The notes under the pieces were generated by a model. That model was given only the letters and a program-made list of their open reading frames with translations. It was not told the origin of the DNA and searched no databases. The position numbers and the translations under genes were made by a program. From Branchiostoma floridae (lineage: Eukaryota > Chordata > Leptocardii > Amphioxiformes > Branchiostomatidae), in NCBI RefSeq assembly GCF_000003815.2, contig NC_049983.1, positions 11,852,283 through 11,916,282 of the forward strand: a DNA stretch of 64,000 bases, given 5' to 3'. Below are positions 1,575 through 49,735 of the stretch, one piece after another (the stretch's first letter is position 1; each line of letters opens with the position of its first letter).

Positions 1575-4067
1575 CTAGTCTGGACCTTCAAAGTGTTTTG
1601 GTACTTGTTCTGAAATGGGGACATCTGAGGCAGCCGACACGGAGGCGTGAGACGTCGCGGACACAGGCCTGGTCCCTCCCTCCGTGATCTTCCAGGCGAA
1701 CAGCGTGCCCCACACCATCAAGATCAGCATGCCGGTTATCTGTAGGCCGGGCAGTAGTAGCCACAGGTTAACCGATGGTTTCTCCGCTCCCCCTGCCCTT
1801 GTTTCCGCCTGGAGAGCCGCGCCCTGTGGAGTGGGTGTCTCCCCGCTCTGTCTGGCGGGCAGCCCGTCGGTGACGTAGGTGAACAGGTCTCCGGTGGTGC
1901 CGACAGCATCCGATGTGCTGACCTCTGTTGTGAGACTGTTGCCCGTGCTTTCTCCGCCATTTTGACGAATTACCATTTCTGAAAACACACCAAATCACGG
2001 TTAAGTCTATACCCTCGTTTAAAGTGCATGCAATTGACTGCCTATTGTGAGCTAACAAAACAAAGATTTTACAGCACCCCCTAATTAATGGCTATAGCTT
2101 ACCTGATTGGCAGATGTAGCGAAGTGGATGGGAGCAGGTAAACCGTTTCCATCCCTGGTTGTTCATGATCCTCGCAGCCACGCAGTCCTTTCCGTCCTCG
2201 GCGTTAGGGCGAGGGGCCTGACCGTTTATCCATCGCCTGAACGTTCCCAAAGGGGAGCCGTCCGAGAAACGGAAGGGCCGGTCCGCTGTTCCCGAACCGT
2301 TCCTTCTCAGCCCGATCCACAAGAATCCAGGCGGGATTTTTTTTGACTAAAAATGGTACTGAATTAGAATATAGTTTACTGTCGTTTTCTAGCTATAGTT
2401 ACACTTTTTGCTAACTATAGTAACACTTTTTCCAAGCTATAATAACACTTTTGAAAAGCACGAGAAGTACTTCGGGAGCGATCCATGTTATGGTGTAGAT
2501 TATCGAACACATCCATGTTGAAAAAAATCTAGATATTCAAGAATATATACAACACAATCCCAGCAGCCTATATCCACATTCTCTCAGTATCCATTCGTCT
2601 ATCCATCCATCCATTCATTCATTCTAGTATTGAGTGGTAAGACTATCGTGAACGACTTCAAGTCTACAAATTTCTGATGAAGAAAGAGAAAAGTGGGGCG
2701 TGAGCGTGTCAGATGGTTCTAGGAAGGTGGAAGACTCAAGGGAAGACCTTAGGGTTACGTTGGCGTCCTTTGCAGCGTTTTGGTGGTGGGCGCCCACGGT
2801 TGCGCACCTTTTTCCCAGCCTTACCAAAGGCGACGCCTAGCGGAAATCGGCAGTCCTTCGGGTGGTCCCCGATTGAGTAAGGAGTTGAAGAGGTTGGAAG
2901 TAGGAGAGTAGTGAGCAAAAGAACACTATACTAACTACATAGACATAGATGGGAATACAAAGACATTACGTATCATCAGAAGGGATCAAGCTAATAAAAT
3001 AACATTGCTACATTGTTATTTGGGAGAAAGTGTATTGCACAAATTCTTTCAAAAGGTTGTTATGTACCACGCTTTCGTCGTGTCTGTTTACAACCTTAAC
3101 TTAGCATAATTTTGTAACTGAACAATAATAGAAAGAAAATAGATAACATTTTAAGTCTCACATTACTAGTAAACTGCAAATATAGCGATTGAAACAAATG
3201 ATTTTATCCTCTGAAAGAAAACTGAAGTTGTACACCGATCCTACAATAAATTCTAGTCACAGTATCAAAAAAAAGTCCAACAATAATCAAAACTCACAGA
3301 AAAGATGTGGGCGAGTCCATCCATAATCTTAGCGGTCTTGAACGTGACGAGTTTCCCCCCGTTCTGACCCGAGCACCGCTCTACGGCAGTGTCGTAATCC
3401 ACCCTTTCCTTGCTCACGTCATAGCAACGGTTGCCATAGTGATGAGTCCCTTGACGACAGGACCCCAACGCTTTGGGAACGTGGAAATACTAATTTGGTT
3501 AAAGTTCCCTTTTTTTAAGAAACTCACTTGGATATGTGGATGTGTCATCAGTCTACTTTCACCCTTTTCACCCTTAATGATAACAAAAGTATGCAGTATA
3601 TAGCACCAACAAGAGCGCACCGAATATAAAAAGAGTAGACACTTACTATTCAACATGCAGTACTCCAATAGACTATGACAGAAAAGTATTCCATATGTTC
3701 TTGAACTAGTTTAACTGTTAATATCCAACACAAAAATTGGACTCAATGGCTCAACAATTTTCTGACTGAACAGCACCAGTCTTTGTCAATTTTTGTGTCG
3801 GATATTACAGTTAAATTAGTTCAAGAATGACTTCTACCAACACAGATGAACTTTCAAGTTATTCCATATGTTATCGTTCACCATGTACTAGTTTTTTTAC
3901 GTCTTCTTACCTAGAGCGCCTCCTTCCCTGTGTGGGGGCGGGGTGACAGTGTCGAGATGGGGAGGACGGGGTCCATCACGATCCCGCCTCTGATTCGCGA
4001 GGATGGGGGCCAGCAGCACCCCGCTGACGAGTGCTATCAGCCCGAAACATCTGCCAGATCCCGCCAT
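1575..4067 (-). CDS. Single-pass membrane C-type lectin-like protein, complete four-exon gene
   Basis: Exons on the minus strand are 4067-3911, 3470-3298, 2346-2103 and 1978-1575; together 978 bp, 325 codons plus stop. Exon 1 gives a signal peptide (hydrophobic core FGLIALVSGVLLAPILA) and a Pro-rich linker. Exons 2 and 3 form a C-type lectin domain: Cys pairs in GSCRQGTHHYGNRCYD, then ERC, WIGL, KDCV and RYICQ. Exon 4 encodes a Thr/Ser-rich stalk, a transmembrane helix (LWLLLPGLQITGMLILMVW) and a short cytosolic tail. The usual calcium/sugar motif (EPN or QPD, then WND) is not met: the site reads PRPN and GWKRF, so calcium-dependent sugar binding is doubtful. The exon 2 acceptor was chosen to keep phase with exon 1; an acceptor 20 nt upstream would break the frame. 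Likely a cell-surface recognition protein; ligand unknown. Confidence 0.75.
3698..3827. mobile_element. Palindromic MITE-like element in the lectin gene
   Basis: A 130-bp element with two roughly 41-bp inverted arms (3698-3739 and 3787-3827; ends TTCTTGAACTA and its complement) with few mismatches, in the first intron of the lectin gene. A 13-bp direct copy TATTCCATATGTT occurs at 3687-3699 and 3860-3872, possibly marking a larger insertion. No coding capacity. Confidence 0.55.
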
Positions 4068-4829: not shown

Positions 4830-5923
4830 ATTTTTGCTTCACAAAAATGAATTAATGAATTTATGCCTACCTTCTCGGCCGTTGTAGTTATCAACAAAAA
4901 AGAACCCATAATCACTCCACACTGAATATTTCTTGGTGGGAATACCAGCAACGTTTATTGACTGGCATAAAACATATTGAATACGAGAACGTTTACAAAC
5001 CAAAAATGGATATCATTCCACTAATTGTCGTGCCTGACATATACAATCATTACACTTATTCTGTATCTGAAAAATGTTTTACAAACCTTGCAATATTATA
5101 ACCAACAGTCAACTACGATTTTTCCACCCGCCTACCACAAATTACAATGCGTAACAATTTTAAATAACTCGAAATAAAATATGTGCTTTAACGAGTCTAC
5201 AGCAAATTATAGAAATCATAGCTTGGCACGTGGAGAGCTATGTGCCCAAGTTAGATACAGTATGCATGCCGCAATGTTAACATCAACAAATATCAAAAAC
5301 GAACGCTCTGGTAATACTACAATAGCAATAATACTCAGCAGAGTCACAAAGTATAACACAGTAATCATGGAACTTCACATACTAAGTGTTTAAAGTCGAC
5401 AAATGTACCTCGTGTACTAGGGTGTCTCAAAATCAAAGAGCTTGTGTCTAGGATACTCAGACTCAAAAATATCCAGACCTAAATAAGAAACATCAAAGCT
5501 AATATAAGTTGGCACTCGCCACACTAAGAACTTACCAGGTTATCTCCTTACCTTGAACGCAACTACCTAGGAGTTAACAACATGTGTCTAACCCTAAGTA
5601 TGAATATGTACAAATACTAGAGAACGTACTGAATGTACAACCAATAAGTAACAGTCTATGAGGCAGCAAAAGGTTTATATGTCACAGGCTCAGGGAATCT
5701 TATATACTCCGAGATGTCTGTAATGTGACAACGTGTTACTTAGATCTTCTTCCGTTCCCAGTTCCAGGCTATGTCACTGTATCTACATTACATGTAGCTA
5801 TCCATATAGCAAGAACATATGAATAATGACACGGTGTCAATTGTGATAAACAGCACATATGCAGATAATACAGGGCCGCTCACCACTGCACTATTACATG
5901 ATTAAGTGTACTGCAGCATCAAA

Positions 5924-6181
5924 CTAAACTAACTGTATCAGATCAACTCTTGCCGATGTTCCTTTATATAAAGTCATAATCCTATGTCTATGTTTATCAG
6001 AATTTCTCTGATATGCATTCGGATTTATGAGACGTCTTATAAAAGTACGACCAGGAGAAACAACCTGGCATACATGTTTCAGCAATCCTATCAATGATTG
6101 GATCTGTTTCAAGGCTGATGAAAGATATAGTAATTCTTGAAAGGTAACCCTACATTCCTGCAATTTGTCAAAAGGGGTCAT
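5924..6181 (-). pseudogene. DIRS-like reverse transcriptase/RNase H relic
   Basis: A short open frame on the minus strand contains QSLIGLLKHVCQVVSPGRTF and then IRRLI. From memory this matches the conserved segment after the RT catalytic core in DIRS/Ngaro-type tyrosine-recombinase retrotransposons (QSLiGlLnfackVvpPGRaFlRRLI). No catalytic RT motif or recombinase is visible nearby, so it is a decayed fragment. It lies inside unit 1 of the modular element, which is relevant because such elements carry split direct repeats. However, its strand is opposite to the A-to-B direction expected in a PAT-type layout, so it could be a nested or captured piece. Confidence 0.5.
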
Positions 6182-6461
6182 GCATCCATTTTTCTTCTGT
6201 TAGTGGTGACCCATATCACTACAAACAATAAGATCACGCTCATAGGATGCCTATGTGCTATTAGCGAACAGAAAAACCATCTGTACTAATATGAGTGGGA
6301 TAACATGTGTTCAACTTCCTTACTGCTATCCATTCGAGTACGATGCTAACTGTTTCGACGATGGCACGTGCACATGTGCACAAAACGTAGAACGTCCCAG
6401 GAGCAAACACCAATCATTTATAATCGTAACCATCTTTAAGCCAGAAACCTTCGTAACAGAT

Positions 6462-6715
6462 GCCTGCTGGTAATCCTCCTAGCAGGCTGGTCCTACATGC
6501 CCTTCACAAATCACCCCACTTGTAGAGTTGGACAGTAGGCCTGCTGGTAACCTACCTAGCAGGCTGGTCCTACATGTCCTTCACGAGTCACCCCAGTTGT
6601 AAAGCTGGGCAGTAGGCCTGCTGGTAACATACCTAGCAAGCTATTTCTACAAGTCCTTTACGAGTCACCCCACTTGTAGAGTTGAGCAGTAGGCCTGCTG
6701 GTAACCTACCAGTAG
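6462..6715. repeat. 77-bp minisatellite, three copies plus a partial
   Basis: Units start at 6462, 6539, 6616 and 6693, each with GCCTGCTGGTAA. Units 1 and 2 also contain CCTAGCAGG, so each can fold as a hairpin (CCTGCTGG with CCTAGCAGG). Copies differ by point changes. Located in X of unit 1. Confidence 0.85.
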
Positions 6716-8048
6716 ACTTTCACAACTCAAACTGTGAGACACCAAGGTTAACATTCCATGTCCAAGAACACACCATTGAGGGAGAATTGCATCCCTCAAA
6801 TCGACAGTACTAATAGTCCCCACGCCAAAGGTTACCCGATTAGAAAAATTCAGTATTCGACCAAATCAAGAGAACCTGTGAGTCATACATTCACATAGGT
6901 CATACGGTTGCGAAGCCAAAGTTTTCTCACACAGGAGTAGGCATGTACAAAAAACACCTGAGTCATACAATGAAACTTAATGCATCAAAAAACATTGGTG
7001 TTTTCTCCAAAAATGTTTACTCCTCTTTATTGAGATATTTTCAGATTGACGATATCATTCCATTTTCGATTCGATAAAGCACCTGTACTGATCAATTACT
7101 TATATAATTGATTTTCAAAGAATATCAAAGACAAGTTCCTAAATAATGCGTCTGGGCTCAATCTAGAAAATATGACTTTTCAATCGATTGCACACGCCTC
7201 CCGTTAGATATACCGGAATTTGACACACGTTTTCAAAAAATTCTACTCGGAATCCACTTAAAATCATCTAATGAGGCGTGCGAGGAGAATAAGGAACTTT
7301 TCCCATTTTAATTTCTGCTAGAATTCAGCTCATTTAGGATATTTTCTGTTACCACGGCCTTGGGCAAATATGGACGAAACCTGGGCCTTATAAAGCAGAT
7401 TATCTTGCCAACCGACTGCGCCTCCGGCTATACGATATAATATGTACATACAGGAGTGGTTCAGTTCTATTTAAACACTTAAAAAAAATGTCTTTCTTAG
7501 CAAATCAAAAGAAAACTTTCAATTTGAAAAGGAATAACCCGGTTTAGAATCAGTAGCCATAAAATTGATATTGGAACAGGCAGAATGCTACAATATAGCG
7601 CCTGACCAAAAGCTTTGTCCATCCTACCCAAAGCATATTGAAAATGAATTTATGATGGAATTTTCTATATACGCTAGTTTATGTAATGAATTATTCATAT
7701 TTCTCGAATCAAGTACAACAGATTTCTAGAGACTTGATGCTACAAACAGATTTGTATATATCTTTAGATGTCAGAACTCCCATAAAATAGACAAATATAT
7801 CAACGACTGTTCTGCTATTAGAAAGAATACCGTATTACTAACTAATAATTAGCCTACTCCATTGCAATACTATATCAAAAAATTATGTTAGCCATTCTTG
7901 TTATGTCAACTAGGTTGTTAAGCTTTATCCTATACCTTATTTTGTACTCTGTGTAATAAATGTTGCTTACATTGTATCAAGTACAATTGTCGTGCAATAA
8001 AGTTCTTCTGTATATTGGGTAAGTAGAATAAGAAAATGGTATGCAAAT

Positions 8049-8960
8049 CACACGACCACACAGCCAAAATTAACCTGTGGTAACCCTCCCAGCAGGTCGC
8101 ACAGGTAAATAAAATAGGAGAAAGGTCTGTGGGTCACACGACCACACAGCCAAAATTAACCTGTGGTAACCCTTCCAGCAGGTCGCACAGGTAAATAAAT
8201 TAAGAGAATGGTCTGTGGGTCACACGACCACACAGCCAAAATTAACCTGTGGTAACCCTCCCAGCAGGTCGCACAGGTAAATAAAATTAGAGAATGGTCT
8301 GTTAGTACTAGTTGTATTAGTTGGATCTCGATTATGTAGCTTTGTTACAACCAGCTTGATCATTCTGCGGGGTTTGATCATATAGTGTTTCCTTGAAAAC
8401 CAGTAGAGAAAAATATTTGAAAATTTTTTTTAACCAGTAACTTATGCTAATCTGTCCCTGCCTGTGTATATAGCCTGTAGACAGTCTGGGATTTTTATTG
8501 GTTTATGTATCTATAGGGATCAATTCGCCCCTCTAGCTGCTGGGATGGTTACAGTAGGGAGTATTTCCTTATAGCTTTATCCAGGGCACAAGAGATTTCC
8601 GTTTAAGAGAATGGTCTGTGGGTCACACGGCCACACAGCCAAAATAACCTGTGGTAACCCTCCTAGCAGGTCGCACAGGTAAATTAGGAAAATGGTCTGT
8701 GTGCCATATGGTCGCACAGCCAAATTTAACCTGTGAGTCATACTCACGCACAGGTAGATAGAGTAGGAGAATGGTCTGCGGGCCAGACGTTCACACAGCC
8801 AAGTATAACCTGTGAGTCATACTTTCGCACAGGTGAATAAAATAAGAAAATGGTCTGTGAGCCATACGGTCACACAGCCAAATATATAACCTGTGAGTCA
8901 TACTTTAGCACAGGTAAATAAAATAAGATAAAAATCTGCAAGTCCTACGGTCGCAGATCG
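8049..8960. repeat. 86-bp minisatellite of two alternating hairpins, interrupted
   Basis: Units start at 8049, 8135 and 8221, then the array is broken by about 300 bp of other sequence (8300-8600) and resumes to about 8960 in diverged form. Each unit has two hairpins: type 1 runs CTGTG...CACAG and type 2 runs ACCTGTG...CACAGGT. Stem arms persist while loops change. A decayed copy of the motif appears near 6876-6970, about 1 kb away. Confidence 0.85.
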
Positions 8961-9060
8961 GTCAAATTACCCGCGCAGTAGTGAGTCAACGATCAGCCGT
9001 GAACAAATACTAACTGTGAGCCATACGGTCAAACAACAAAATCATCTTCATGATATATAA

Positions 9061-9310
9061 ACCAGGCCTCATAACGGTGAGAGCATGAGTTGGTATTGAT
9101 CAGAAATTATTCCCGGTAAACGGTAACAACTACCCACATAAGAGTGGGTCAACATACAGATTCCTTCATTAAGTATTAAACCAGAGTTCATAACAGGCGA
9201 GAGCATGGCATGGTATTGATTAGAAATAATTTCCCGGTAAACAGTGACAACTACCCACATAAGGGTGGGTCAACATTCAGCTACTTTCATTGAGTATCAA
9301 ACCAGGGAGC
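9061..9310. repeat. 120-bp tandem repeat, two copies plus a partial
   Basis: Units begin at 9061, 9180 and 9301 with ACCAG and share CCCGGTAAAC and CTACCCACATAAG. The partial third copy ends in CCTGCTGGTATCAGCAAG, which echoes the CCTGCTGG hairpin of the 77-bp array, linking the arrays of unit 1. Confidence 0.8.
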
Positions 9311-9651
9311 ATAACCTGCTGGTATCAGCAAGAAATGATTATCCAATTAAAAGAAGAAGAAAAAATGAAAAAATAAATCCACAATAATCGCCTGTCGAAA
9401 CTACCTCAGGTATCCCTTGGGACTGGGTGGGAGGGCACAAAAACAAGCAATAAACTCCGCCAGTCTGTCAGGCGGGAGCTCGAAAGATTGTTTGTCCTTC
9501 TTCTTCTGTGATCTCTTCAAGAGTGAACAGTGTAATCCGTCTGAACGCTGATTGGTAGATTGGAAGGCGCTGATTGATTGTTAGAAAAGAACTTCGGTTT
9601 AGCTTGGGCCAAAACAAATTAGATCGGCCGTCACGTCCGGCCTAAATTTTT

Positions 9652-11378
9652 ATTTTTGCTTCACAAAAATGAATTTATGCCTACCTTCTCGGCCGTTGTA
9701 GTTATCAACAAAAAAGAACCCATAATCACTCCACACTGAATATTTCTTGGTGGGAATACCAGCAACGTTTATTGACTGGCATAAAACATATTGAATACGA
9801 GAACGTTTACAAACCAAAAATGGATATCATTCCACTAATTGTCGTGCCTGACATATACAATCATTACACTTATTCTGTATCTGAAAAATGTTTTACAAAC
9901 CTTGCAATATTATAACCAACAGTCAACTACGATTTTTCCACCCGCCAATGGAGCGATAGCGACGAAAAGCCCCCCCAAAGCGAGCCGATAGGCGATAAGA
10001 AAGGCCAGGAAGGTAGGCATGAACAAGAAAATGATCCTCTGGAAACGTGACCATCGGATACCCCTTTCCACGACACTGTGCTGTTTCTCTAATCATCGGA
10101 ACAAAATTTTCTAGTCTCTTCACGAAAGAATTCCATACACTAAGCACTCAATAACAACGAATACTGAATGTACTCCTGATTTACCCTAAGATTCAGTTAT
10201 GAACGATGTACAAAGTTTTGGAATTGACTCTGATGTACTTCTGTCTTCAATGTTAACACAGCTGCACAGAAGTCCTAGTAGGTTGAAAACAAAGATTCAA
10301 AATAACCATCTATGAAAAACTTGACTGCTATTCAGGTCCTGAATCCCATTCGGCTTGTCAGGATTATAACAAAATCTACACAAAGTTTTGGAACCGTGCA
10401 ATACATAATACATGTAACGCTAGTAACGTTACCTCTTTAACTGAGGGTCTGTATGCTCTTTTCCGTAATGCCTATGCAGCCTAATTATTATTTCCCATAA
10501 CTCGTAGAGAAACTATCTTTTCTAAACATCAGTAATTCGTGGCGAGGCGACCAAATTCATCGTAATTGTCTTCCTCGATTTAGCGTAATAAGTCGGGGGC
10601 CCTGCAGAATTCAACGTAGATCGTCATCCGTACACCCCATGCAGACCCTCTTAGAACGTTATGTAACAATGGTTGAATTTACCCATTTTGATTATGAGCG
10701 CCTGCATGTAGTTCCTCAATCCTGACTAGAAAACGGTCAGTTAAACACCGAATCACGGTTAAACTACCCTTGACTTGACAGTTTTCAGTCAAGTAAATCT
10801 GTAAAAAGTTTTGTGAAAGACGCCATGGCCTTTTAATTTTTGTCACCCCCACCGACGACAGTTCTTTGTGGTAACGTTACGTAACACAATCAATCCTGTT
10901 GTTAGTTTATCCTCTTGCTAACAATAGGCTAATGACTGAAACAAACTATGGATTATTGAACACTTGCCTCATACTCAAAGACTTATAAGGTTGGAAAAGA
11001 AAAACCCGAGGCATCAGTGTAACGTTACATGTGCCTGGGAAGTTTTCGAACTCAAATTGTGGTAGCGCCAGACTTACCGCAACAATGTTCAAATCCAGCG
11101 CTGAGAATCTCCCAAAATAAACAAATCACGAAGCAACAAAAATAAGATTTCCGTTACACACAAAAACAAGCAATAAACTCCGCCAGTCTGTCAGGCGGGA
11201 GCTCGAAAGATTGTTTGTCCTTCTTCTTCTGTGATCTCTTCAAGAGTGAACAGTGTAATCCGTCTGAACGCTGATTGGTAGATTGGAAGGCGCTGATTGA
11301 TTGTTAGAAAAGAACTTCGGTTTAGCTTGGGCCAAAACAAATTAGATCGGCCGTCACGTCCGGCCTAAATTTTTATTT
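9652..11378. mobile_element. Modular element, unit 2 (A2 - Y - B2)
   Basis: Module A2 (9652-9946) follows B1 directly. Module B2 (11159-11378) closes the unit. The 1.2-kb middle Y (9947-11158) shares nothing visible with X of unit 1. Y begins with a stretch open on the minus strand (about 10147-9947, containing AYLPGLSYRLSARFGGAFRR) with no ATG at its head that I can defend and no recognised family; it could be captured host sequence or chance. The tetramer ATTT occurs at the left edge of unit 1, the junction and the right edge of unit 2, so a short target duplication is possible but weak. Confidence 0.65.
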
Positions 11379-21215: not shown

Positions 21216-21989
21216 TTAGACTACATCTCTCCTCATAGAAGTCAAATGTATAACACTGTGCATTTCCTCTAACTTTATATCCAGGTTGCTGCTCTCCCCG
21301 GAGCTTCCGTTTCGCCTAAGCGCGTACCCAGGGTAGCAGTCCCGCCGGGGAGCGAGCCTTCTCTCCCGCTGAATTGCCTCGCGGATCTCCACGTAGGCGT
21401 GACCCCTGTGAGACGTCACTACGCAATGCAGGCATACCAGTAACTCGCACGGCCCGCACAGGAACAGGTGTACCTGCCGTTTGTTCTCAGACCGAGACGT
21501 CGGTGGTGTTGCGTCGGTAGCCTTGCAGTTCTGCCCCGTAAGCTCGGACACCTGCAGCAGCTCGTGTTCGCTCGCCGCGTCAGATATGACCCTGTGCGTG
21601 TGGGAGCAGTCCTTGCAGAGGTAATGTTCGCAGCCCTTACAGTACGCAGTGGCCGTGGCCTCCTTACATTGACACAGTCCACAGCAGGCCCTGTCCGCGT
21701 CCCCAAGCATAGCTGTTCGAGTCGACACCACTTTCTGAAGTTTCCTCAGAAAGTGACTATCCTCGAAGTCCCGAACACCCCTCCCCGGTAGCCTGGCCTC
21801 CTGTCGACACGAAGGACAGGACAGACGCGTACGCCTCCGACCCTCCTTGGCAGAATCCAAGACGTTCTCCAGACACTTCCGACAGAAGCAGTGTGTGCAC
21901 GGAAGCTTCTTCGGCTCGTCGTACTCCTCAAGACACACGCTACACACCAGGAAACGTTCCGTGATCTCTTCTAGCAGTTCCTTCGCCAT
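21216..21989 (-). CDS. TRIM-type protein: RING finger plus two B-boxes (probable E3 ubiquitin ligase, truncated)
   Basis: Start chosen at the ATG giving MAKELLEEITERFLVCSVC, the usual TRIM opening; a longer frame begins 19 codons earlier but has no RING-related sequence. RING C3HC4 residues are C16, C19, C31, H33, C36, C39, C58 and C61. A B-box 1-like Cys cluster (CCGLCQCKE...YCKGC...CKDC) and a B-box 2 (FLCGPCELLVCLHC...HRGH) follow. The frame ends after 257 codons, before the coiled coil and C-terminal domain normally present. Either the true gene splices out of this exon near its end and continues left, or the gene is a short or decayed single-exon copy. TRIM genes are much expanded in lancelets, which fits. 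Confidence 0.75.
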   Translation of the reverse strand: MAKELLEEITERFLVCSVCLEEYDEPKKLPCTHCFCRKCLENVLDSAKEGRRRTRLSCPSCRQEARLPGRGVRDFEDSHFLRKLQKVVSTRTAMLGDADRACCGLCQCKEATATAYCKGCEHYLCKDCSHTHRVISDAASEHELLQVSELTGQNCKATDATPPTSRSENKRQVHLFLCGPCELLVCLHCVVTSHRGHAYVEIREAIQRERRLAPRRDCYPGYALRRNGSSGESSNLDIKLEEMHSVIHLTSMRRDVV

Positions 21990-23819
21990 GTTGCCGGTGA
22001 CATGTCCCGCACCTCTCTGTACACACAGGCACTCACTCACACGCATTTGGGAGACTGGTCACGTGGTGCTACCCAAATTATCCACGATTGCCCCCGCGGC
22101 TATTGGTTTCCCCAGAACTATTATTAGTGCTTCTTCCTAGTGTCATCTGCTGCTTTCACGCTTCAATAGCATCACGTCACCCGGTATCCTTCAAGAGACC
22201 CATTTGCAGTAATTTACTCCCGGCCGGAAAATACGACGTTGCCCCTTGGAATAATGTGGGGCACCGGAGATGATTTCTTTTTATATCCGCCGTGTCCCCA
22301 AATTTCATGTGGTGTTCAATGATTCATAACATAGCATGCACACTCTGCTAGTCGTCGACTGTACTGGAACCAGACGACACATTTCAATCTTATAATGTTT
22401 ATTTTGTGGCCTCCTTCGCAGACCACTGAGTAGGTTGCGCAGACTTTTCGGAGCGCCGACGTTATTGTTCGGAGGGGAAGCGCTGACTCGTGATTATTTT
22501 CATCATGGGCTAGGTTCTCTAATGCCAGGAGAGGGAGTTTCCGCGCGCTAATTATCTCCAAAGCGCTCCCTCCAAGAATAAGCGCTGTAACTCCAAGAAG
22601 TCTGCGAAGGAGGTTATATTTGTTCAGTACTTCTCCGCCAAGATACATATGCATGGGGTCATGCAGGCCACCTTCCAGCAATTGGGATTACATTTTAGCA
22701 TTCCGAGTGCCCAGCTTTTCCGTTTCAGTGTTTGCAGAACAAACGCAGGAGTACAGGCTGAGAGAGAGCTCTGTGTTCTGACAGCTGACTTTCTTCAGGC
22801 CGGATTTCACCGTTAACCAAACAGCACTGCGGCAGCTTTCTTGATCGATTCGATTTAAATTCCAATTTCGCCCTTCCGTACCCAACCGTCACGACGTACG
22901 GTCGGATATCCTGATAAACATTGATCTTTGCAATTTGAGGAGGGAAAATTGTATTCCTTTGAGCTAAATGAAAAGAAATAAAATCATTTGATACTTCTTT
23001 ATTGATTTTCTTTACTTTACGATGGAATTGAAGCTGCTGTTATGTATCTCAATTTGGCCAGTTCACGTCAAATCATAAGTTACACGCTATGTTCTATGCA
23101 TGCAATTTCGACCATTCGATTGCTTTGTAAACGATTTATAAGTTTTAGACTTGATTAACGATTTATGTGCGACAGGCACGAAGAAGCAATGTGATGGCGC
23201 CATGAGTCTGTCTCCAGCACAATCTCTGCGCCAAGGGAATATTCATCGTATTTATCTAGATTCTTATTTCATCTAAAAACGTCTAATGAAAATCATATCA
23301 ATGAGTTTTGATCCAGCTTGATCTATTAACCCCCAATGCCCTTAATTTACGAGACAGCGATTGCGCTGCGACCTCACTACAACCTAAATTCGATTTGTCT
23401 TACCCTTTATTTCAAATTACATCATACTGTAAACCTTTTACTGAAAATACAACTAAACACACAAAGCATACAAATCTTTATTTTTGAAATTCATAGATTG
23501 ATCTGTCAATTCTGCAACGCAGCGAGGTCAACTCCCTAGTGGAATGTAAGGGTGTGAGGATGGGTACTTCATATCAATATTTATGTAAAGTATAGTGCTG
23601 TTCATCTCAGTCAAGGACAAATCAACATCCACATTTGTGTAGGATAGCGTGAAATAACAGCGGTGTCAGAAAACGTACCACCTTCTAAAAATTGCACTGG
23701 GGTCTCATTAACTCATGATCATTCAGCCCACATTGTTCCTGTATGCGCTACGCGGAAACGGATAGTAGAACTCTGCAGAAGAAAAGGGTGAGGAATTGTC
23801 CAGGAGAGTCAGTCCGGGT
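21990..23819. other. TRIM gene 5' flank and intergenic DNA
   Basis: 22316-22681 is open on the minus strand without a convincing start or domain. Nothing else is recognised. Confidence 0.3.
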
Positions 23820-27825: not shown

Positions 27826-30816
27826 TTAATGTTCCCTGAGGCGTTGGAGAACTGCCTCCTTGAACTTTGGAGCGTCTGTGATCTCCGTGACCTCGTACGG
27901 TAGAGAGTTCCAATCTCTCACGGTTTGTGGGAAGAAGGAATGTTTGTAGCAGTCTTTGTGAAAAGGTAGAGCCTTGTAAGAATTTGGGTTTGAGTGTCGC
28001 GATTGGCGCGGTACAGGCTTTAGATGAGTTTCGACCGGTAGGGCTACTTTGTGGTGTCTTGCTTTCTGTAGAATTGTTAGTCTATTTGCTGTCCTTCTGT
28101 TGCGTAAAGTGTCCCACCCCAAATCAGAGACAAGTTTGGTGACACTATCATGACTATGATACGAATTTGTGACAAATCTAGCCGCTCTTTTTTGAACGGA
28201 CTCTAACTTAGCAATGTGCTCTTTGTGGTATGGATCCCAGGCAGCGCTGGAATACTCTAAATGCGGTCTAACAAGGGATGTATATGCATTTGTTTTGACT
28301 GATTTGGGGCAGTTATAAAGATTGCGTCTCACAAAGCCTAACGTCTTGTTAGCCTTGGAAGCACTGTACTGTATGTGTTGTGACCAAGAGAGCTGGTTGT
28401 TGAGTGTGACTCCTAAGTATTTGTGGTTGTTAGTCTCGGCTAGAACATGACTTCCTAATTTGTAGTCGTAGAGTTTAGGTTTACGTTTGTGGGTATAACG
28501 CATAACAAAACATTTGTCCGGGTGTAATTTCATCTGCCATGTGTTTTGCCATGTATCTAATGTATTGATGTCCTCTTGTAAGAGGGTGTGATCTCTGTCA
28601 CTGTTTATCTCCCTGTAAATGACGCAGTCATCCGCAAAGAGACGGATGTTAGAGTTGAGGTTGTCGGCTAAGTCGTTAATGTACACTAAGAACAGTAGTG
28701 GTCCGAGCACAGTGCCCTGGGGCACTCCAGAGACTACCTCTGCCCACTCTGAGTGCTCTCCCCCAACTACCACTCTTTGTTTACGATTTTTGAGGAAATT
28801 AGAAATCCAGTGGAGAACCTTACCCCTAATACCATAATTTTGGAGTTTTAGGAGTAAGCGATCATGAGGTACTTTGTCAAAAGCTTTTGCGAAGTCGGTT
28901 ATAATCATATCTGTTTGCGACCTGGTATCTAAAGAATGGGCTAAGTCAGTTGTAGTTAAAATAAGTTGGGTTTCACATGAACGCTTTTTCCTAAACCCAT
29001 GCTGCTTGTCAGATAATATAGAGTATTTGTCAAAATGATCCATCATCTGTGATTGCACTATGTGCTCCATAACCTTACTACAAACACATGTAAGAGAAAC
29101 AGGACGATAATTTGCAGGATCAGTCCTGTCCCCCTTTTTAAAGATGGGAGAGATATTGGCATGTAGCCATGGGGAAGGGATTTGGCCAGTTTCAAGTGAT
29201 TTCTGACAAATAATAGTCAGAGCAGGGGCTAACTCAGCAGCTGCTAGTTTGAGGATCCTTGTTGGTAGGCCGTCTGGTCCACTTGCTTTGTGTGGATTCA
29301 GATCTTTTAGGAGTTTGGTGACTCCGTTTACATTGATGGAAAAGTCAGGCATAGTGGGGATAGAACTACGGGGGAGGCGGGGCATGTGTTCATCCTCTCG
29401 TGTAAAGACAGAGCTGAATTGGTTGTTAAGGATGTTAGCTTTGTTTCTGTTATCTGTTTCTAGCTTTCCTTTCTGCTTAAGACTAGGGATCCCAGTTGTA
29501 TCCTGTTTTAAGTGTTTGATGTGCGACCAAAACTTCTTGGGGGAATCAGAACATATAGAATTGACATATTTACGGTAGTTTTGTCTGGTAGTCTTTTTTG
29601 CTCGTTTGCGAATAGTGCGGAATTTAGTCAAGTTCTCGGTTGTTGGGTTTTTACGATAAGAGTTGTAGGCTCGCTGTTTTTTCTTATGTATTTTCCTAAC
29701 CTTGTTGTTAATCCAAGGTGAAAAATTATTATTGTTAATAGTTTTGGATGGGACATATTTGTCCATCACTATCTTGATTTTGTCCACAAATTCATTATAA
29801 AGCTCTTCTGTTGTGCAATTGTCAATGTTCCGTTTAGCTAAATTATTACTGTAATCCTGTAGCTCAGTTCTTATGGCGGTTTCATCAGCTTTTTTCCAAA
29901 GTGAAACACGCCTGGGGCTTTGTTTGATTTTCTTAGGTTTAACATTAACAGTAATAACTGGGATGCCATCATGGTCCCCTATACCTGGGATCAGAGAACA
30001 AGTTTCAACAAGTGATGAATTATTAGTTAAGAAAAGATCAAGGGTGTTATTGAGACGGGTTGGTTGATCCACAACCTGTTCGAGCCCAAAGTCATGTGTT
30101 AACTCTAAAAAATGTTTAGAAAGTGCACTATAGGGAGCGCTTGGGCTCACACTTAAGTTGTTCCAGTCTATACCAGGGAAATTGAGATCCCCCCCTAGCC
30201 ATACTTGGCCACCTTGTGGTTTAATCTTGTTTAATGAGGCTCTCAGTTTATCTACAAAGTCAATGTCTTTTGCATAAGTATGCGATCTGTAACAAGAACC
30301 AATTGTAATCGGTTTGGCTCCTTGGATCTCCAAGGTTGCCCATACCGTTTCACACTCAGTGTCTAGATCTAATCTATGTGTAACTATCAAGTCGTTCTTG
30401 TAGGCAAGGAGAACACCCCCTCCCTTTCTCCCCAGTTCTCTGTCTTTCCTTATGACGGTATAGTCTGGGGGGAAAAGTTCACTACTGCCAACTGAGTCAT
30501 TTAGATGTGTTTCTGAGCCTAGTATAATATCTGGAGAATGCTGGTCTAAGCATGCTGCTAGATCAGCAGTTTTGTTGCGTATGCCCTGGAAATTTATAAC
30601 ACATGTTTTTAATTTCTGTTTGGGGGGGCCCTTTGCGTCTACTTGGCTTGGCTTTAGCCTTAAGAGGCGATGAAGCGGCCAAGGGTGACTTGGCAATTCC
30701 CGGGTTTGACGGGTTGTTATGATTCCCAGAAGAGTTGGTTTGTGAATGTATCGAAGACAAACTTTCGAAACTGTTAGACAGCTCGAAGTCACTATTATTA
30801 AAGAGTGAACTTTCAC
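27826..30816 (-). CDS. LINE ORF2: AP endonuclease and reverse transcriptase
   Basis: The frame spans 996 codons. An APE-type endonuclease runs from about residue 70 to 290 (VINFQGIRNK, catalytic Glu in GSETHL at 102, GGDLNFPGIDW near 209, GDHDG at 280-284). The reverse transcriptase covers about 500-790: catalytic aspartates in IITDFAKAFDKVPHDR and the box LFADDC at 727-730, with SGVPQGTVLGPLLFLVYIND before it. Residues 1 to about 65 are not native: they come from the inverted segment and a linker read out of frame. The native linker frame (ending HTQQNC) is shifted relative to the endonuclease at a C7 run (30622-30628). The protein would nick target DNA and copy the LINE RNA by target-primed reverse transcription. 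Family certain; clade within CR1/L2/Jockey not certain. Confidence 0.9.
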   Translation of the reverse strand: MKVHSLIIVTSSCLTVSKVCLRYIHKPTLLGIITTRQTRELPSHPWPLHRLLRLKPSQVDAKGPPKQKLKTCVINFQGIRNKTADLAACLDQHSPDIILGSETHLNDSVGSSELFPPDYTVIRKDRELGRKGGGVLLAYKNDLIVTHRLDLDTECETVWATLEIQGAKPITIGSCYRSHTYAKDIDFVDKLRASLNKIKPQGGQVWLGGDLNFPGIDWNNLSVSPSAPYSALSKHFLELTHDFGLEQVVDQPTRLNNTLDLFLTNNSSLVETCSLIPGIGDHDGIPVITVNVKPKKIKQSPRRVSLWKKADETAIRTELQDYSNNLAKRNIDNCTTEELYNEFVDKIKIVMDKYVPSKTINNNNFSPWINNKVRKIHKKKQRAYNSYRKNPTTENLTKFRTIRKRAKKTTRQNYRKYVNSICSDSPKKFWSHIKHLKQDTTGIPSLKQKGKLETDNRNKANILNNQFSSVFTREDEHMPRLPRSSIPTMPDFSINVNGVTKLLKDLNPHKASGPDGLPTRILKLAAAELAPALTIICQKSLETGQIPSPWLHANISPIFKKGDRTDPANYRPVSLTCVCSKVMEHIVQSQMMDHFDKYSILSDKQHGFRKKRSCETQLILTTTDLAHSLDTRSQTDMIITDFAKAFDKVPHDRLLLKLQNYGIRGKVLHWISNFLKNRKQRVVVGGEHSEWAEVVSGVPQGTVLGPLLFLVYINDLADNLNSNIRLFADDCVIYREINSDRDHTLLQEDINTLDTWQNTWQMKLHPDKCFVMRYTHKRKPKLYDYKLGSHVLAETNNHKYLGVTLNNQLSWSQHIQYSASKANKTLGFVRRNLYNCPKSVKTNAYTSLVRPHLEYSSAAWDPYHKEHIAKLESVQKRAARFVTNSYHSHDSVTKLVSDLGWDTLRNRRTANRLTILQKARHHKVALPVETHLKPVPRQSRHSNPNSYKALPFHKDCYKHSFFPQTVRDWNSLPYEVTEITDAPKFKEAVLQRLREH

Positions 30817-30850
30817 TCTTTAATAATAGTGACTTCGAGCTGTCTAACAG
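30771..30850. repeat. 39-bp-arm inverted repeat at the LINE inversion centre
   Basis: Arms 30771-30809 and 30812-30850 are perfect complements around a 2-nt spacer. Beyond the arms the similarity continues with interruptions to about 30690 and 30960: both sides encode relatives of FNNSDFELSNS and NHNNPSNPGIAKS in opposite directions. A 22-bp block and a 17-bp gap differ, so the two sides come from slightly different copies or have diverged. Confidence 0.9.
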
Positions 30851-30916
30851 TAGCTATTGTGTTCCGCCAGAACATTCACAAACCAACTCTTCTTGCAATT
30901 CCTGCCCTGATGGGAA

Positions 30917-31291
30917 TCATAACAACCCGTCAAACCCGGGAATTGCCAAGTCCCACTTGGCAGCTTTGCCACACAAGAGACAAGGAAATTTGGGTTTGTA
31001 GGGGCCTGGATTTGGATGAACGTCCCCTGACTGTGTTAACATAACAAGGAGGGCTATAGATACAGAAATTGACTTGAGTGGGTTTCTAGGTGAGTTGGGT
31101 CTGTCTTTCTGGTGTTTGTGGAAACTCAGTAAGTTTAGTATGCCAGGAGTAAACTTAAAGTCAGAGTTTGGGGCCATGAGCAAGTTGGGGTTTGCTGGAC
31201 CCTCCCTGTTTACATGGACTAACAGTTGGTTTGAGAGGGAGTAGAGTCCCACTATTATTACTAACAAGTTTAATACATTTGACCACATCAT
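30917..31291 (-). CDS. LINE N-terminal frame with 2A-like peptide and broken PHD-type finger
   Basis: From the first ATG (31291) the product has a hydrophobic start (VLNLLVIIVGLYSLS) and then LLVMLTQSGDVHPNPGP, ending near 31001. GDVHPNPGP fits the 2A ribosome-skipping core D-V-x-x-N-P-G-P with His in place of the common Glu. After it comes PKFPCLLCGKAAKW, which looks like the start of the PHD-type zinc finger found in such LINE proteins. The finger is cut after its first Cys pair by the inverted segment, and the frame ends there. 2A motifs at this position are known in CR1-like elements of sea urchin and lancelet. Confidence 0.7.
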   Translation of the reverse strand: MMWSNVLNLLVIIVGLYSLSNQLLVHVNREGPANPNLLMAPNSDFKFTPGILNLLSFHKHQKDRPNSPRNPLKSISVSIALLVMLTQSGDVHPNPGPYKPKFPCLLCGKAAKWDLAIPGFDGLL

Positions 31292-31329
31292 TGTTGCTTG
31301 TTCACGAAATATAATACTTGTTCCCAAAA

Positions 31330-33345
31330 TACAATACTGTCTTAGATTATTTACTACTTGGCGGTGTGGTCAGGAGTTTGCTGGAAGTATGTCGCTAGTG
31401 CATGTGCGCACTTGTACCTATCGTGACGGTATAAGTGAAAAAACGGATTTGTAATATCTTAACAACCTGAAATTTACTAATTCTACAATTCAATTTTGTC
31501 CCTACCGGTCTACCGCTGCAGTCTTACCTTTGCCGCTCGCGACACATACAAATTACAGGCTCATATTTTAGCCGTAGCGGGTACGACTGGAGAAAACAAG
31601 ATGGCTACCGCTAGGGGAGGTGGTCACGCGACCGTGGTCGCCCTCCCCCTTAGGTACTTGCGTGACTTTCGGTGCTTGTTGCTTCAAAACTGGGTTCCTG
31701 AGAGTGGAATTTTCGCTCAAATTCCGTTCCTGGGTGTTCTTGGGATCCTCCGGTGATGGTGTAGAGGACTTGCTCCTTGTAGTTTTGCCCGCGGCGAGAG
31801 TTTTAGGTGGTAAAGAACCCCCGTATCGCGGAAAGGTGTTCACACACCGCGCATGCGCACTCCCAATTACTTACATTTCGTGTCGTGAAACCACTAAGTA
31901 TTAATTATGAACGTTATCGAAAGACTTCTGTTTGTATTGTCACCATTGAGCAGAACGGTGGTGGAAAGGGGACGTTTCCAGTTGTTACCTCTATATTTTG
32001 ATATCTGTGATGTAGCCTGTGGATTTCCAACATTTTTGTATACAAGTAGCGTGTTTCTTCAGATGACCTCTGACCTCCGAAATTGTTCACAAAGTATTCT
32101 GGTGTATAATAGTGCAATTATAATGAATTCTTGTAACACAACCCAAATAGATTGTAGTCTGATTTTAAATTATCTTGTTAGATATGTTGTAGAGTTTTGA
32201 TAAATGCTAGTGATAACGTTGTACTGCCATTCCTGTGTATTTGTCTGGCCTAACTTGTAAACTCCGATGTCAGCAACGCTGCCTGAGAGTCTGACAGGCG
32301 TAATGTACTTTGTCACATTTGCTATTAAATCGTTTCCACGTTGTATTTCGCGTCCTATCATTCAGATAGGCTTCCACAAAGTGCAAAACGCACTTTGTTG
32401 GTAGGTTTTGTTGAGTTCACAATAAGTGACCGCCTTGACGAGACTGGGTTTGCTCATTTTTGTCAGGAGACGAGCTGCTAAAATGCTCCTCTGTGTGAGC
32501 TTGATATCTTCCCCTTGTGTGTTATTACAAAACATGTCCAGAGACACCTGATGACGTCACAACAAGGGGCCGCCGTAACTACTCAGGTTTTCCGTCAAAC
32601 CGCTCTTCTAAAGAAGCTTGGTATCCTTCCGTTGTGTAAATATGCTGCTGTCTTAATGAAATAAGCCATACTCTGATAACTGTGTTAAGTTCAAGTTCGA
32701 CGAATGAGACATAAATCTACAACAGCATAATACACAATGAAGTACTTGCTATCTCACAACGCAGAACTGGATCCTTAAGCACGGTCTTGGGCCTTGGGTT
32801 TAGTCGAACGGGAAAGTATGTACAGAAAATCAATGAGCACGTAAGTTTAAGATGAAACCCTTAAAAATATAGCGGATGAGAGTGAGCTGTAAAACGCTAG
32901 AGGGGCTGAGTGATTAGAAGCTTGAGACACTTTAGATGTACCAGGCCCATAACTTCAAACATTTCTATCTTTATAACTGTGTCTACCCACAGAAACACGT
33001 TTAAAAGTTCAAAGTAGTGGGCAGGTCCTCAGATGGCGTGGCTTGTTAATGCACACCAATAAACTTTTGATCGTAAAATACACTTAAGCTAAGGCATCGA
33101 ACGCAGCCAAGGTTTCTCCCTTTGAACACTTCACCGTCGATCGAAAGTGCGCCCTTGGACGAAAATAGGGGCATGTAATCCGCATGAAGGGACACCACAC
33201 ACCGATCGTAACCCTTGTAGTAGCGCCCATTTACTGATCTCTGTGGAAAGCCAAGGCCTCGTACTATCGTAACATTAGTAGTTTGTTGTAAATGTTTCAT
33301 CGTTACAAATGGACTCTCTATATAATGTCCTTGTCCTTGATTAAG
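31330..33345. other. LINE 5' flank and intergenic DNA
   Basis: 31568-31843 is open on the minus strand without ATG (Ser/Thr/Pro-rich product) and might be LINE 5' sequence or an unrelated exon remnant. 33058-33340 is open on the minus strand (contains RGLGFPQRSVNGRYYKGYDR) but I recognise no family. Confidence 0.3.
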
Positions 33346-42000: not shown

Positions 42001-45000
42001 CCAACTTTTATCTCTACATCGTCAAAATCTCACCGTGGAGGGGCCAAGACCCCCCTTCCACACTTCCAAACCAATCTCCTGATTGGTCGCTTCGCTATCA
42101 TGCCATTCCCACTAGTACTATGCTAAAATGAAATCCTGGCTAGAACCCTGAATGTTGGATGATAGGGTACCAAGTGATGAGTGGTAGATCACCTTCATGT
42201 CAAATCTCCTGCAGAGTTCTATGAAGAGGTACTCGTAGCCGTACTTGGCCTTACAGTTCAGCCTCACCACATAGTGGGCACCTCTGCTGATCCAGCTGGA
42301 GACAAGACAATATTACACACAATGAGAACATCTGGTGATCTTCTCTTGATTTCTTATTTTTAAAGTACTACATATGAAATATCAACTAAGATACTAACGC
42401 TAGTTCACCTTTATCCGCTGGGTAACCTTTATCCGATGTTTAAGAAAACTGCGTATTTAGGGATGTCAATGCGCAGACTGTGGTTTTAAGTCGGTAAACA
42501 AGCTGTATGTTAAAAATATTGCACTTTCAAACCACTGTCCATCCACCTGATATCCCTAAACATCCCCTGGTTTTAAAACAATGAATATAGGTTACCCACG
42601 GATAAAGGTGAACTAGCCTTATATAATACATATAGTATATCGACCTTGACCTTTGTCTTACCAACACCTACCCACACCAAATTTCATAATTGTAATCCAT
42701 CAAGAGGTTCTTGAGTTATGCTGTCTACCAAAATCCGGAAACACAAAGACACACAGACACACCCAAAATAATTACTCCATTTATCTCCATTTTTCATGGC
42801 GATGATAAATTATAGAATAAAACCACACATAAAGATAATGAGTCATAAAAACCAACACCATCAATCACACAAATGAAGACCAGTTCATCTCACCTTTGCA
42901 CCACATTGATCAGTGCTGTGCAGCAGTCCTCCTGAAATAGTGGAGAACTTCATGAATAAATAATTTTCAATTTCACTGAGTATCTTGCCATAGCTACTGG
43001 ATAAAAATAAACCATAGATGACCCCATGCCCTTTCATCTACAGATGCAGCTGGTATCAAGGTCAAGGAAGTACCAGCACAATTACATAGATGAAGGCTAG
43101 TCATACAGGACATAATATAGTAATTTACAAAATATGTCGTAAACATGGATATCAGGTAATTTCCCACTGTTTGATTTATCATGATTATACAGCATGTACA
43201 CAACATTTTGGTTTGGTTTGGCCTGACAGAATTCAACTTCTGAATAATTGAATCAGTACTAGTGGGGGGTTTAAGAAGAGGATTTCATACTATATTGCCT
43301 CTTATCCAAACTGTATGATATCACATGATAAGAAAGATAACCAGATCATCATCATACTCTATCATCAGAACCAACAAAATTTTTAACTAATTAAGTAACA
43401 AAACTTCAATAATTAAAGATTTCACACCAAAAACACATTTTAATGCCCAATACCCAATGAACACCATCCCAGTGAGGTATAATTGATAAGGATGATGTAG
43501 TTACCCTGCAGGGGATGTACTTACCCTGGAGGGAATGTACTTACCCTGGAGGGGATGTACTTTGCCTCTGGGACCAGGAATGTGGTATCAACATACAGGC
43601 TCTGGATATTCTTAAGTCTGAAATCAATAAATAAGAGATGAGATATGATCAGGCCAGGTCACATGGAAGGACCTCTTCCACTAGGCAAAGATACTTATAA
43701 GGGTACAGACGAGTTGTTTCAGGCCTAGACAAACACACTAACATTAAGATATATCATTCATCGTAAGCCATTTATATCAACATAATATTTCATAGTATGA
43801 ATATCACTAATGACTTGATTTGGAGTTTTACTAGGAATGATACATGACACAAAATGAAATGTAATCAAATAATAAATCAGTTGATTGACTGCTCTACAAT
43901 TTTAAAACTATAGTTTATTTGTTTTCTTCATATCTTACCCTGTAATTAAAATGATTCATATTGTGATTGGTAGCTTCATATACTTGCAGGCTAAAGGAAC
44001 ATCTGAAGGAACTCACTAACTCACACTCACTCACACACACTAACTCACTATCCGGTGAACACATGAAAATAAGCCTGTATTTTGAATGATTTGTACTGCG
44101 ATTGATATAAATTCATTTGTATGTTATGAACGTCAGCAAGATTTTACGTAATTCAGCCTTTTGGCTGCTGTATATTTTTGTTTTCAATAAACCAATCAAC
44201 ATCATCTACGGACCTGTCCCCCTGATGTAGATGTTGAAACTGTGCTGCGCCCCCCACAGGCAGTCTGAAGTCTCCTGTGTACAGTACTGTACCCTCCGAT
44301 CCCTCGAACAGAAACCTGCAGAGGGGGTGAAACACATGACACAGACTGCCAGGCTTGTGTACTTTGTACTTAGTACATTAACCTGATAATGAGACATCCA
44401 TATCCTGTTCTGGCTCTGTTTGTTCCTTTGATCTGGACCACATTGAATATGTTGGCACACATTTGTAGAGTTTCAAACAACTGGTCTTTGAAAATTAGCA
44501 AGTCAAGAGATCTAATTGGCATCGAGTCACACGCTACCGGACAATAAGGGCATGGTGACAGGGTTTTAATAGGCTTTGAAAGTTTGAATGCCATTACACT
44601 ACTGCTTCTTAGACAGGGCTCAAAAATCACTTGGGGTAATAGGAGCACTGGTGCATCTGATTTTGAAAATAAGGTGAACAAAAAATTCTGTGCACACAGT
44701 ATACAATGATTAAAGTAGAATGTCTACCATTCACAATTACAAACCTTACTGCTCCTCTCCTGTCATCCTCCTACGCACGGTCCCAACGGCTATCTGACTG
44801 CTCAGCCTATTGGGCCCTGCTATCCCAGGCCCTACCCGCACGTATTGGGCTTTTTGTTGTCTAATCTGTCTCGCAAAGGCCGCTGGGAAGCTATCAGCCA
44901 ATCATGTTACGTCTTACATAGCACCATCCTCCTACGCCCGATTCCCAACGGCTGACTGCCCATATAAGGGTAAGCTCATTAATATCCCAACGGCTGACTG

Positions 45001-48360: not shown

Positions 48361-49735
48361 TGGGCCATCTCGGTCATTTTTGGACCCCGAAAACTTTCCG
48401 CAGGTCCGCGCCTTTGCAAAAATGCCATTTTGGGCCCAAAACGGGCCATCTCGGCCGGTGTGGGGAAATTTCATTTTTGGACCCCGAAAACTTTCCGCAG
48501 GTCCGCGCCTTTGCAAAAATGCCATTTTGGGCCCAAAACGGGCCATCTCGGCCGGTGTGGGGAAATTTCATTTTTGGACCCCGAAAACTTTCCGCAGGTC
48601 CGCGCCTTTGCAAAAATGCCATTTTGGGCCCAAAACGGGCCATCTCGGCCGGTGTGGGGAAATTTCATTTTTGGACCCCGAAAACTTTCCGCAGGTCCGC
48701 GCCTTTGCAAAAATGCCATTTTGGGCCCAAAACGGGCCATCTCGGCCGGTGTGGGGAAATTTCATTTTTGGACCCCGAAAACTTTCCGCAGGTCCGCGCC
48801 TTTGCAAAAATGCCATTTTGGGCCCAAAACGGGCCATCTCGGCCGGTGTGGGGAAATTTCATTTTTGGACCCCGAAAACTTTCCGCAGGTCCGCGCCTTT
48901 GCAAAAATGCCATTTTGGGCCCAAAACGGGCCATCTCGGCCGGTGTGGGGAAATTTCATTTTTGGACCCCGAAAACTTTCCGCAGGTCCGCGCCTTTGCA
49001 AAAATGCCATTTTGGGCCCAAAACGGGCCATCTCGGCCGGTGTGGGGAAATTTCATTTTTGGACCCCGAAAACTTTCCGCAGGTCCGCGACCTTTGCAAA
49101 AATGCCATTTTGGGCCCAAAACGGGCCATCTCGGCCGGTGTGGGGAAATTTCATTTTTGGACCCCGAAAACTTTCCGCAGGTCCGCGCCTTTGCAAAAAT
49201 GCCATTTTGGGCCCAAAACGGGCCATCTCGGCCGGTGTGGGGAAATTTCATTTTTGGACCCCGAAAACTTTCCGCAGGTCCGCGCCTTTGCAAAAATGCC
49301 ATTTTGGGCCCAAAACGGGCCATCTCGGCCGGTGTGGGGAAATTTCATTTTTGGACCCCGAAAACTTTCCGCAGGTCCGCGCCTTTGCAAAAATGCCATT
49401 TTGGGCCCAAAACGGGCCATCTCGGCCGGTGTGGGGAAATTTCATTTTTGGACCCCGAAAACTTTCCGCAGGTCCGCGCCTTTGCAAAAATGCCATTTTG
49501 GGCCCAAAACGGGCCATCTCGGCCGGTGTGGGGAAATTTCATTTTTGGACCCCGAAAACTTTCCGCAGGTCCGCGCCTTTGCAAAAATGCCATTTTGGGC
49601 CCAAAACGGGCCATCTCGGCCGGTGTGGGGAAATTTCATTTTTGGACCCCGAAAACTTTCCGCAGGTCCGCGCCTTTGCAAAAATGCCATTTTGGGCCCA
49701 AAACGGGCCATCTCGGCCGGTGTGGGGAAATTTCA
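48361..49735. repeat. 97-bp satellite, 14 near-identical copies
   Basis: Unit landmarks are GGACCCCGAAAACTTTCCGC, AGGTCCGCGCC, AAAAATGCCATTTTGGGCCC and GGCCGGTGTGGGGAAATTTC. Starts occur every 97 bp from about 48376; one unit near 49090 has an extra A (CCGCGACC) and is 98 bp, and the first is short by about 20 bp on its left. Because 97 is not a multiple of 3 and the unit has no stop in any forward frame, all three plus frames stay open for over 460 codons. These frames share one cyclic 97-codon sequence and are not evidence of a gene. Confidence 0.95.

What the first reader, a model, noticed from the sequence alone, without database searches (positions are those of the whole stretch)
4830..11378. 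A-X-B-A-Y-B element: shared ends, unrelated middles, directly abutting
Modules A (303 and 295 bp, differing mainly by one 8-bp stretch) and B (220 bp each, apparently identical) occur twice in the same orientation, and B1 abuts A2 exactly. X and Y share nothing visible. Near-identical ends show recent activity or homogenisation, while the middles differ fully. This resembles split direct repeats of PAT/Ngaro retrotransposons (A1-body-B1-A2-B2), but with an extra 1.2 kb between A2 and B2 and an RT relic in the wrong strand. A new non-autonomous family that carries varying cargo is the alternative.
Basis: partly seen in the sequence, partly recalled or inferred. Interest (0 to 1): 0.7.

Follow-up and report, generated by a model that had tools for sequence, protein, structure and literature searches.

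The report
Defective jumping gene with split repeats
The odd A-X-B-A-Y-B arrangement is one copy of a gutted retrotransposon of the kind that inserts itself with a tyrosine recombinase, lying on the opposite strand from the one assumed; intact relatives in the same genome share its layout, in which the inner repeat pair sits in an unusual place.

Summary
The repeat pattern is confirmed exactly. It is one element, not two with different cargo: in the window's own genome 14 of 15 loci with paired A copies, window included, read in the same order with homologous X and Y; the fifteenth has lost most of X. The coding strand is minus: a1(B2)-Y-b1a2(A2,B1)-X-b2(A1). X keeps a decayed reverse-transcriptase (RT) piece in 14 of 14 copies, none with gag or recombinase. 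Its long open relatives lie in intact elements; the one read in full carries hydrolase, gag-like, RT and tyrosine-recombinase ORFs and the same a-b-a-b repeats, with the first 28 bp of a identical to the window's. Five of five full intact copies place b1a2 between hydrolase and RT, unlike Ngaro as described. The varying-cargo and Helentron readings fail. Novelty is modest: an amphioxus Ngaro-like element with a distinct repeat arrangement is already in print (PMC2632668).

The parts
4830..11378 (-). Whole element, 6549 bp, coding strand minus: a1-Y-b1a2-X-b2
   Evidence: Same order at 14 paired loci; orientation from the RT remnant and the intact relative
9947..11158 (-). Y module; in intact relatives this place holds a GDSL/SGNH hydrolase ORF; only a weak trace here (E 0.09)
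5133..9435 (-). X module; in the intact relative this place holds gag-like, RT/RNase H and recombinase ORFs; here no gag or recombinase found at E<=1
5996..6449 (-). RT remnant, collinear with residues 277-445 of the relative's 634-aa RT ORF; the 91-codon open stretch 5927-6199 overlaps it
8018..8955 (.). Minisatellite arrays (86 and 79 bp units), homologous to the array behind a2 in the intact relative
6462..6710 (.). Minisatellite, 77 bp unit x 3.2
9059..9315 (.). Minisatellite, 121 bp unit x 2.1

Best explanation
One recently inserted, non-autonomous copy of a tyrosine-recombinase (YR) retrotransposon with split direct repeats, on the minus strand. Shown: constant layout a1-Y-b1a2-X-b2 across the genome, near-identical repeats within each copy, a retained RT fragment, no gag or YR match in the copies examined, and an intact relative with hydrolase, gag-like, RT and YR ORFs and the same repeat pattern. 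Inferred, following the published model for such elements: element RNA is copied by proteins supplied in trans by a relative; the inner b1a2 junction is the template that rejoins and completes the outer ends, so a1=a2 and b1=b2 at insertion; the circular DNA is inserted by the YR at a short shared core (AAAT here) without a target-site duplication. X and Y look unrelated because they are the two different bodies between the repeats.
For: Order a-Y-b-a-X-b at 14 of 15 paired loci, the fifteenth a deletion of it. RT remnant in the same place and sense in 14 of 14; gag and YR at E<=1 in 0 of 14. Intact relative on C11: a1/a2 99.7%, b1/b2 99.3% identical; PF00589 3.6e-11, PF00078 2.1e-11, PF13472 8e-8. 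First 28 bp of a identical, b about 70% identical to the window's. Five of five full intact copies show the same repeat order by coordinates. Repeat divergence within a copy averages 0.30% in 13 copies; 0 substitutions in 515 bp in the window. No abutting target duplication over 2 bp in 14 copies. One lone a-Y-b and three a-RT-b copies, as expected from recombination between like repeats.
Against: No intact copy with closely matching ends was found: the best RT relatives in long frames are 66-70% identical and their b about 70%, so the helper of this subfamily is not identified. The hydrolase trace in Y is weak (E 0.001 in one copy, 0.08-0.09 in three). Within-copy repeat divergence is below that to the nearest other copy in only 8 of 13, tied at zero in 3, above in 2. 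The right end lacks the final T in 3 copies, so the core is not invariant. Ends were set by BLAST and may be off by a few bases, and two of the 14 have one end that is not a true element end. The requests that would have mapped the YR genome-wide did not complete.
Confidence: 0.93

Rival explanations
1. Right family, wrong history: the copies are relics that lost their genes after their last insertion, and the high identity of repeats reflects gene conversion within each copy.
For: gag and YR absent in 14 of 14; no intact copy with closely matching ends found; conversion would also give low within-copy divergence.
Against: All 14 keep the same stretch of RT and lack the rest, so they multiplied after the loss. 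Three copies of the second subfamily on C3, C5 and C8 have zero substitutions between them in the repeats, which conversion inside a copy does not explain.
Confidence: 0.04
2. Two non-autonomous rolling-circle elements (Helentron/HINE type) with shared ends and different middles, inserted head to tail.
For: T-rich ends, imperfect inverted similarity of A start and B end (26 of 39 aligned positions, 7 of 1000 shuffles as good), short hairpin near the B end, minisatellites.
Against: Order is constant at 14 of 15 paired loci, not a mix of AXB, AYB and both orders; no exact inverted match of 11 bp or more links A start and B end; the body derives from an RT/YR element.
Confidence: 0.02
3. Assembly artefact joining two haplotypes.
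For: Lancelet genomes are reported as highly heterozygous (PMC12500494, abstract start in a search listing), if this is one.
Against: The same structure stands at 14 places on different contigs with different flanks.
Confidence: 0.01

Closest known systems
Ngaro-like retrotransposons (Xenopus DIRS-53_XT; PMC9210276, passages)
   Same: Split direct repeats of like size (236 and 152 bp, 100% identical there; 295 and 220 bp here), RT/RH and YR ORFs, an SGNH hydrolase ORF, no methyltransferase match.
   Different: There A1 is at the 5' end and B1, A2, B2 at the 3' end, and the hydrolase follows the YR. Here the inner pair lies between the hydrolase and gag/RT, and the hydrolase comes first.
Amphioxus Ngaro-like element near VCBP2/5 (PMC2632668, passages)
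   Same: Ngaro-like, gag, RT/RH and YR ORFs; its split-repeat arrangement is called distinct from others in that genome and in other invertebrates.
   Different: No hydrolase is mentioned in its text; its structure is in a supplementary file I could not open, so identity with the C11-type element is untested.
PAT / Kangaroo elements (PMC4157794, section 7 and passages)
   Same: Split direct repeats; placement of the inner pair varies, with nematode and echinoderm forms, so an inner pair away from the 3' end is not new in itself.
   Different: They belong to the methyltransferase-encoding DIRS group; no methyltransferase match was seen here. A hydrolase module is not mentioned in the section read.
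Helentron / HINE / DINE-1 (PMC4067079, passages)
   Same: T-rich ends, hairpin near one end, inner tandem repeats, non-autonomous copies.
   Different: No exact sub-terminal inverted repeat of 11 bp or more; the body derives from an RT/YR element.

Membership tests
YR retrotransposon with split direct repeats (Ngaro/PAT/VIPER type) | a1...b1a2...b2 direct repeats with b1 abutting a2 | tested here: met
YR retrotransposon with split direct repeats (Ngaro/PAT/VIPER type) | a1=a2 and b1=b2 at insertion | tested here: met
   mean 0.30% within 13 copies; 99.7% and 99.3% in the intact relative
YR retrotransposon with split direct repeats (Ngaro/PAT/VIPER type) | RT/RNase H and tyrosine recombinase encoded | tested here: met
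   Met in the intact C11 relative. The window copy has an RT remnant only, no YR
YR retrotransposon with split direct repeats (Ngaro/PAT/VIPER type) | No target-site duplication (recalled as a trait of the group) | tested here: met
   at most 2 bp in 14 copies; two of them have one end that is not a true end
Ngaro | Inner repeats at the 3' end, downstream of the YR | tested here: not met
   inner pair lies upstream of RT in 5 of 5 full intact copies (RT peptide not matched in the C17 copy)
Ngaro | No methyltransferase domain | tested here: met
   no methyltransferase family at E<=0.1 in four ORFs of the C11 element, the hydrolase ORF scanned in part
Ngaro | RT/YR phylogeny inside Ngaro | not testable with these tools
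   no labelled reference proteins at hand
PAT | Methyltransferase domain of the DIRS group | tested here: not met
Helentron / HINE | Sub-terminal inverted repeats of at least 11 identical bp | tested here: not met
   no exact inverted match of 11 bp or more between A start and B end
Helentron / HINE | Autonomous partner with Rep/helicase | not tested
   no search made; an RT/YR relative was found instead

The most novel reading that the evidence does not exclude
The inner b-a junction acts as a second attachment site, so the element is a two-cassette system: the a-hydrolase-b and a-gag-RT-YR-b modules can be cut out, inserted or stacked by the recombinase itself. The lone a-Y-b copy, the three a-RT-b copies and the doubled X module on C319 would be its products, and keeping the hydrolase in its own cassette would be why the inner junction sits ahead of gag. 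Against it: the order never appears permuted in the 14 full copies, and ordinary recombination between like repeats explains the single-module copies.
Probability: 0.12. Interest if true: 0.7.

Novelty: new variant of a known kind. Interest (0 to 1): 0.4.

Why it matters
It explains a puzzling repeat layout and corrects its polarity. It documents a multi-copy non-autonomous lineage of tyrosine-recombinase retrotransposons together with intact, more distant relatives in the same genome. The intact elements carry a hydrolase ORF in a separate a-b module ahead of gag, unlike Ngaro in the passages I read. The fixed order in 14 full copies also constrains the integration model: a circle with two alike b-a junctions, both usable, should give permuted copies, and none is among the A pairs listed.

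Tried and rejected
Varying cargo and Helentron/HINE: rejected (constant order; no exact sub-terminal inverted repeats). MITE reading of A: the A2 start has a 12-bp inverted match inside Y at about 9993-10023 (1 of 1000 shuffles as good), but the X beside A1 has none (991 of 1000); left as a side note. Rfam at gathering thresholds and ARAGORN on the window: nothing. Pfam on nine ORFs of the region: no match above a curated cut-off. Viral-contig scans with the RT peptide and with a degenerate motif: no relatives. X against Y: end-to-end tests gave 90 of 300 and 245 of 300 shuffles as good; the long gapped whole-length alignments were not tested against shuffles. No chance test was run for the 17 hydrolase-RT pairs. 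The YR-protein search, the PF00589 search and two pattern searches for a census did not complete, so copy numbers are lower bounds; the genome search also scores only its best candidates (40 of 71 for A). Of 10 unpaired A places I examined three.

Literature seen: passages of PMC2632668, PMC4067079, PMC9210276, PMC8547959, PMC3783388 (32, one passage), PMC6681497; passages and section 7 of PMC4157794; other papers as search listings only. I make no claim that anything is absent from print.
Full report
Observation. BLAST of the region against the window returns the described pairs exactly: A1 4830-5132 and A2 9652-9946, identical apart from one 8-bp gap; B1 9436-9655 and B2 11159-11378, 220 of 220. 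B1 and A2 share four bases (ATTT). X carries minisatellites of 77, 86, 79 and 121 bp.

The window lies in an unnamed 513-Mb genome. A (279 bp) gave 40 scored matches out of 71 candidates; 30 of the 40 form 15 same-strand pairs under 10 kb apart and 10 have no partner in the list (counted). I fetched the paired loci and three of the ten unpaired ones. On the strand opposite to A and B as named, 14 of the 15 paired loci (the window included) read a-Y-b-a-X-b; the fifteenth (C8:3.27 Mb) reads Y-b-a-b, with only remnants of X and no a1 found. In two of the 14 the ends are not complete: C11:8.04 Mb has a partial a1, and C319 runs on into a second X module. The three unpaired loci are a lone a-Y-b (C11:8.37 Mb), a lone b (C8:3.90 Mb) and a Y-b fragment (C164). 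On C319 the last 1268 bp of the two X modules are 99.8% identical.

Two subfamilies. Among 13 copies with four usable repeats (C11:8.04 Mb dropped for its partial a1), three (window, C7, C319) differ from each other by 1.6% on average in the repeats (minimum 1.0%), ten others by 1.2% (minimum 0), and the two groups by 9.7%. Within a copy the repeats differ by 0.30% on average (maximum 1.15%), 0 of 515 in the window. Within-copy divergence is below that to the nearest other copy in 8 of 13, tied at zero in 3, above it in 2. This fits repeats regenerated from one another at each transposition, as the published model implies (PMC6681497, passages), though recent copying weakens the test in the second group.

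Strand and body. The 91-aa minus-strand open stretch at 5927-6199 matches 49 places in the genome: other copies of this family, where it is split or holds stops, and relatives elsewhere, mostly in stop-free frames (the longest listed is 1915 aa), at 36-70% identity. One of these, on C11, was fetched with its upstream part. On its coding strand it holds a1 (315 bp), a 258-aa ORF of which 159 aa were scanned and match a GDSL/SGNH hydrolase (PF13472, 8e-8, just above the cut-off), b1 (294 bp) overlapping a2 by 3 bp, a 429-aa ORF that I call gag-like from its place and Cys-rich tail (no Pfam match above cut-off; by recall), a 634-aa ORF with RT (PF00078, 2.1e-11) and weaker RNase H matches, a 333-aa recombinase ORF (PF00589, 3.6e-11), and b2. 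a1/a2 are 99.7% and b1/b2 99.3% identical; the element spans 8038 bp. The window's b is about 70% identical to its b, the first 28 bp of a are identical, and the last ~45 bp of b are strongly conserved. Minisatellites homologous to the window's follow a2 there as well. That the conserved ends are recombinase-binding sites is inference. In the non-autonomous copies, an RT piece stands in the same place and sense in 14 of 14, and no gag or YR match appears at E<=1. A hydrolase trace in Y is weak: E 0.001 in C319 and 0.08-0.09 in three copies.

Layout of the intact family. From coordinates, five copies (C11, C18, C17, C4, C2) have a1-hydrolase-b1a2-RT-b2, 5 of 5; in C17 the RT peptide was not matched, so its RT place is assumed. 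Only C11 was read in full. Three others (two on C6, one on C8) have one a, the RT and one b without a hydrolase match; of the C8 one I read the downstream part, 99.7% identical to C11 over 4689 bp and starting inside gag. Among wider relatives, 17 loci have a hydrolase match 3.6-5.5 kb upstream of an RT match on the same strand, and I found none downstream in the two lists (counted by hand, both lists limited by score). In Xenopus Ngaro the hydrolase follows the YR, with A1 at the 5' end and B1, A2, B2 at the 3' end (PMC9210276, passages). In PAT elements the place of the inner pair varies (PMC4157794, section 7). So the kind is known and the arrangement is a variant. An amphioxus Ngaro-like element with a 'distinct' repeat arrangement was reported in 2008 (PMC2632668, passages; its drawing is in a supplementary file not open to me), so priority for the arrangement may lie there.

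Insertion. No abutting target duplication longer than 2 bp is seen in the 14 copies; ends were placed by BLAST and may be off by a few bases, and two copies have one end that is not a true end. The window's left, right and inner junctions share AAAT; in three other copies the right end lacks the last T, so the core is not invariant. The permuted order a-X-b-a-Y-b, expected if integration could also use the inner junction, is absent from the 14 copies, and no A pair has the spacing of about 1.7 kb that it would give.

Verdict. A non-autonomous split-direct-repeat tyrosine-recombinase retrotransposon on the minus strand. It works like Ngaro/PAT. I do not file it as Ngaro, because the place of the inner repeats was tested and not met and no tree was run, nor as PAT, because no methyltransferase was found. 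The helper of the window's subfamily is not identified.

Noticed in passing
window 9652-9700 and about 9993-10023: The start of A2 recurs in inverse orientation inside Y (12 exact bases with partial extension; 1 of 1000 shuffles as good); nothing like it in the X beside A1.
   Followed up: partly
window 48374-49739: Near-perfect tandem array of a 97-bp unit (99.7-100% between shifted copies), open in several frames.
   Followed up: no
window 44764-45146: 83-bp inverted repeat, 96% identical, enclosing about 217 bp: MITE-like.
   Followed up: no
window 27829-31369, minus strand: Non-LTR retrotransposon: 997-aa ORF with endonuclease and RT matches; the 150-aa ORF upstream holds SGDVHPNPGP, which resembles a 2A-like ribosome-skipping motif (recalled).
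   Followed up: no
window 2095-3489, minus strand: Two exon-like ORFs with C-type-lectin-like matches beside the element (the second is below its curated cut-off).
   Followed up: no
window 21219-22058, minus strand: 280-aa RING ORF with a B-box match just below its cut-off, TRIM-like.
   Followed up: no
L032 (C319:7400-17399): Tandem X modules in one copy (X-b-a-X reading), last 1268 bp 99.8% identical.
   Followed up: partly
C10:231835-236100, C192:182028, C4:32729546 (own genome): Further a-like ends at 72-86% over parts of the repeat, perhaps a third subfamily.
   Followed up: no
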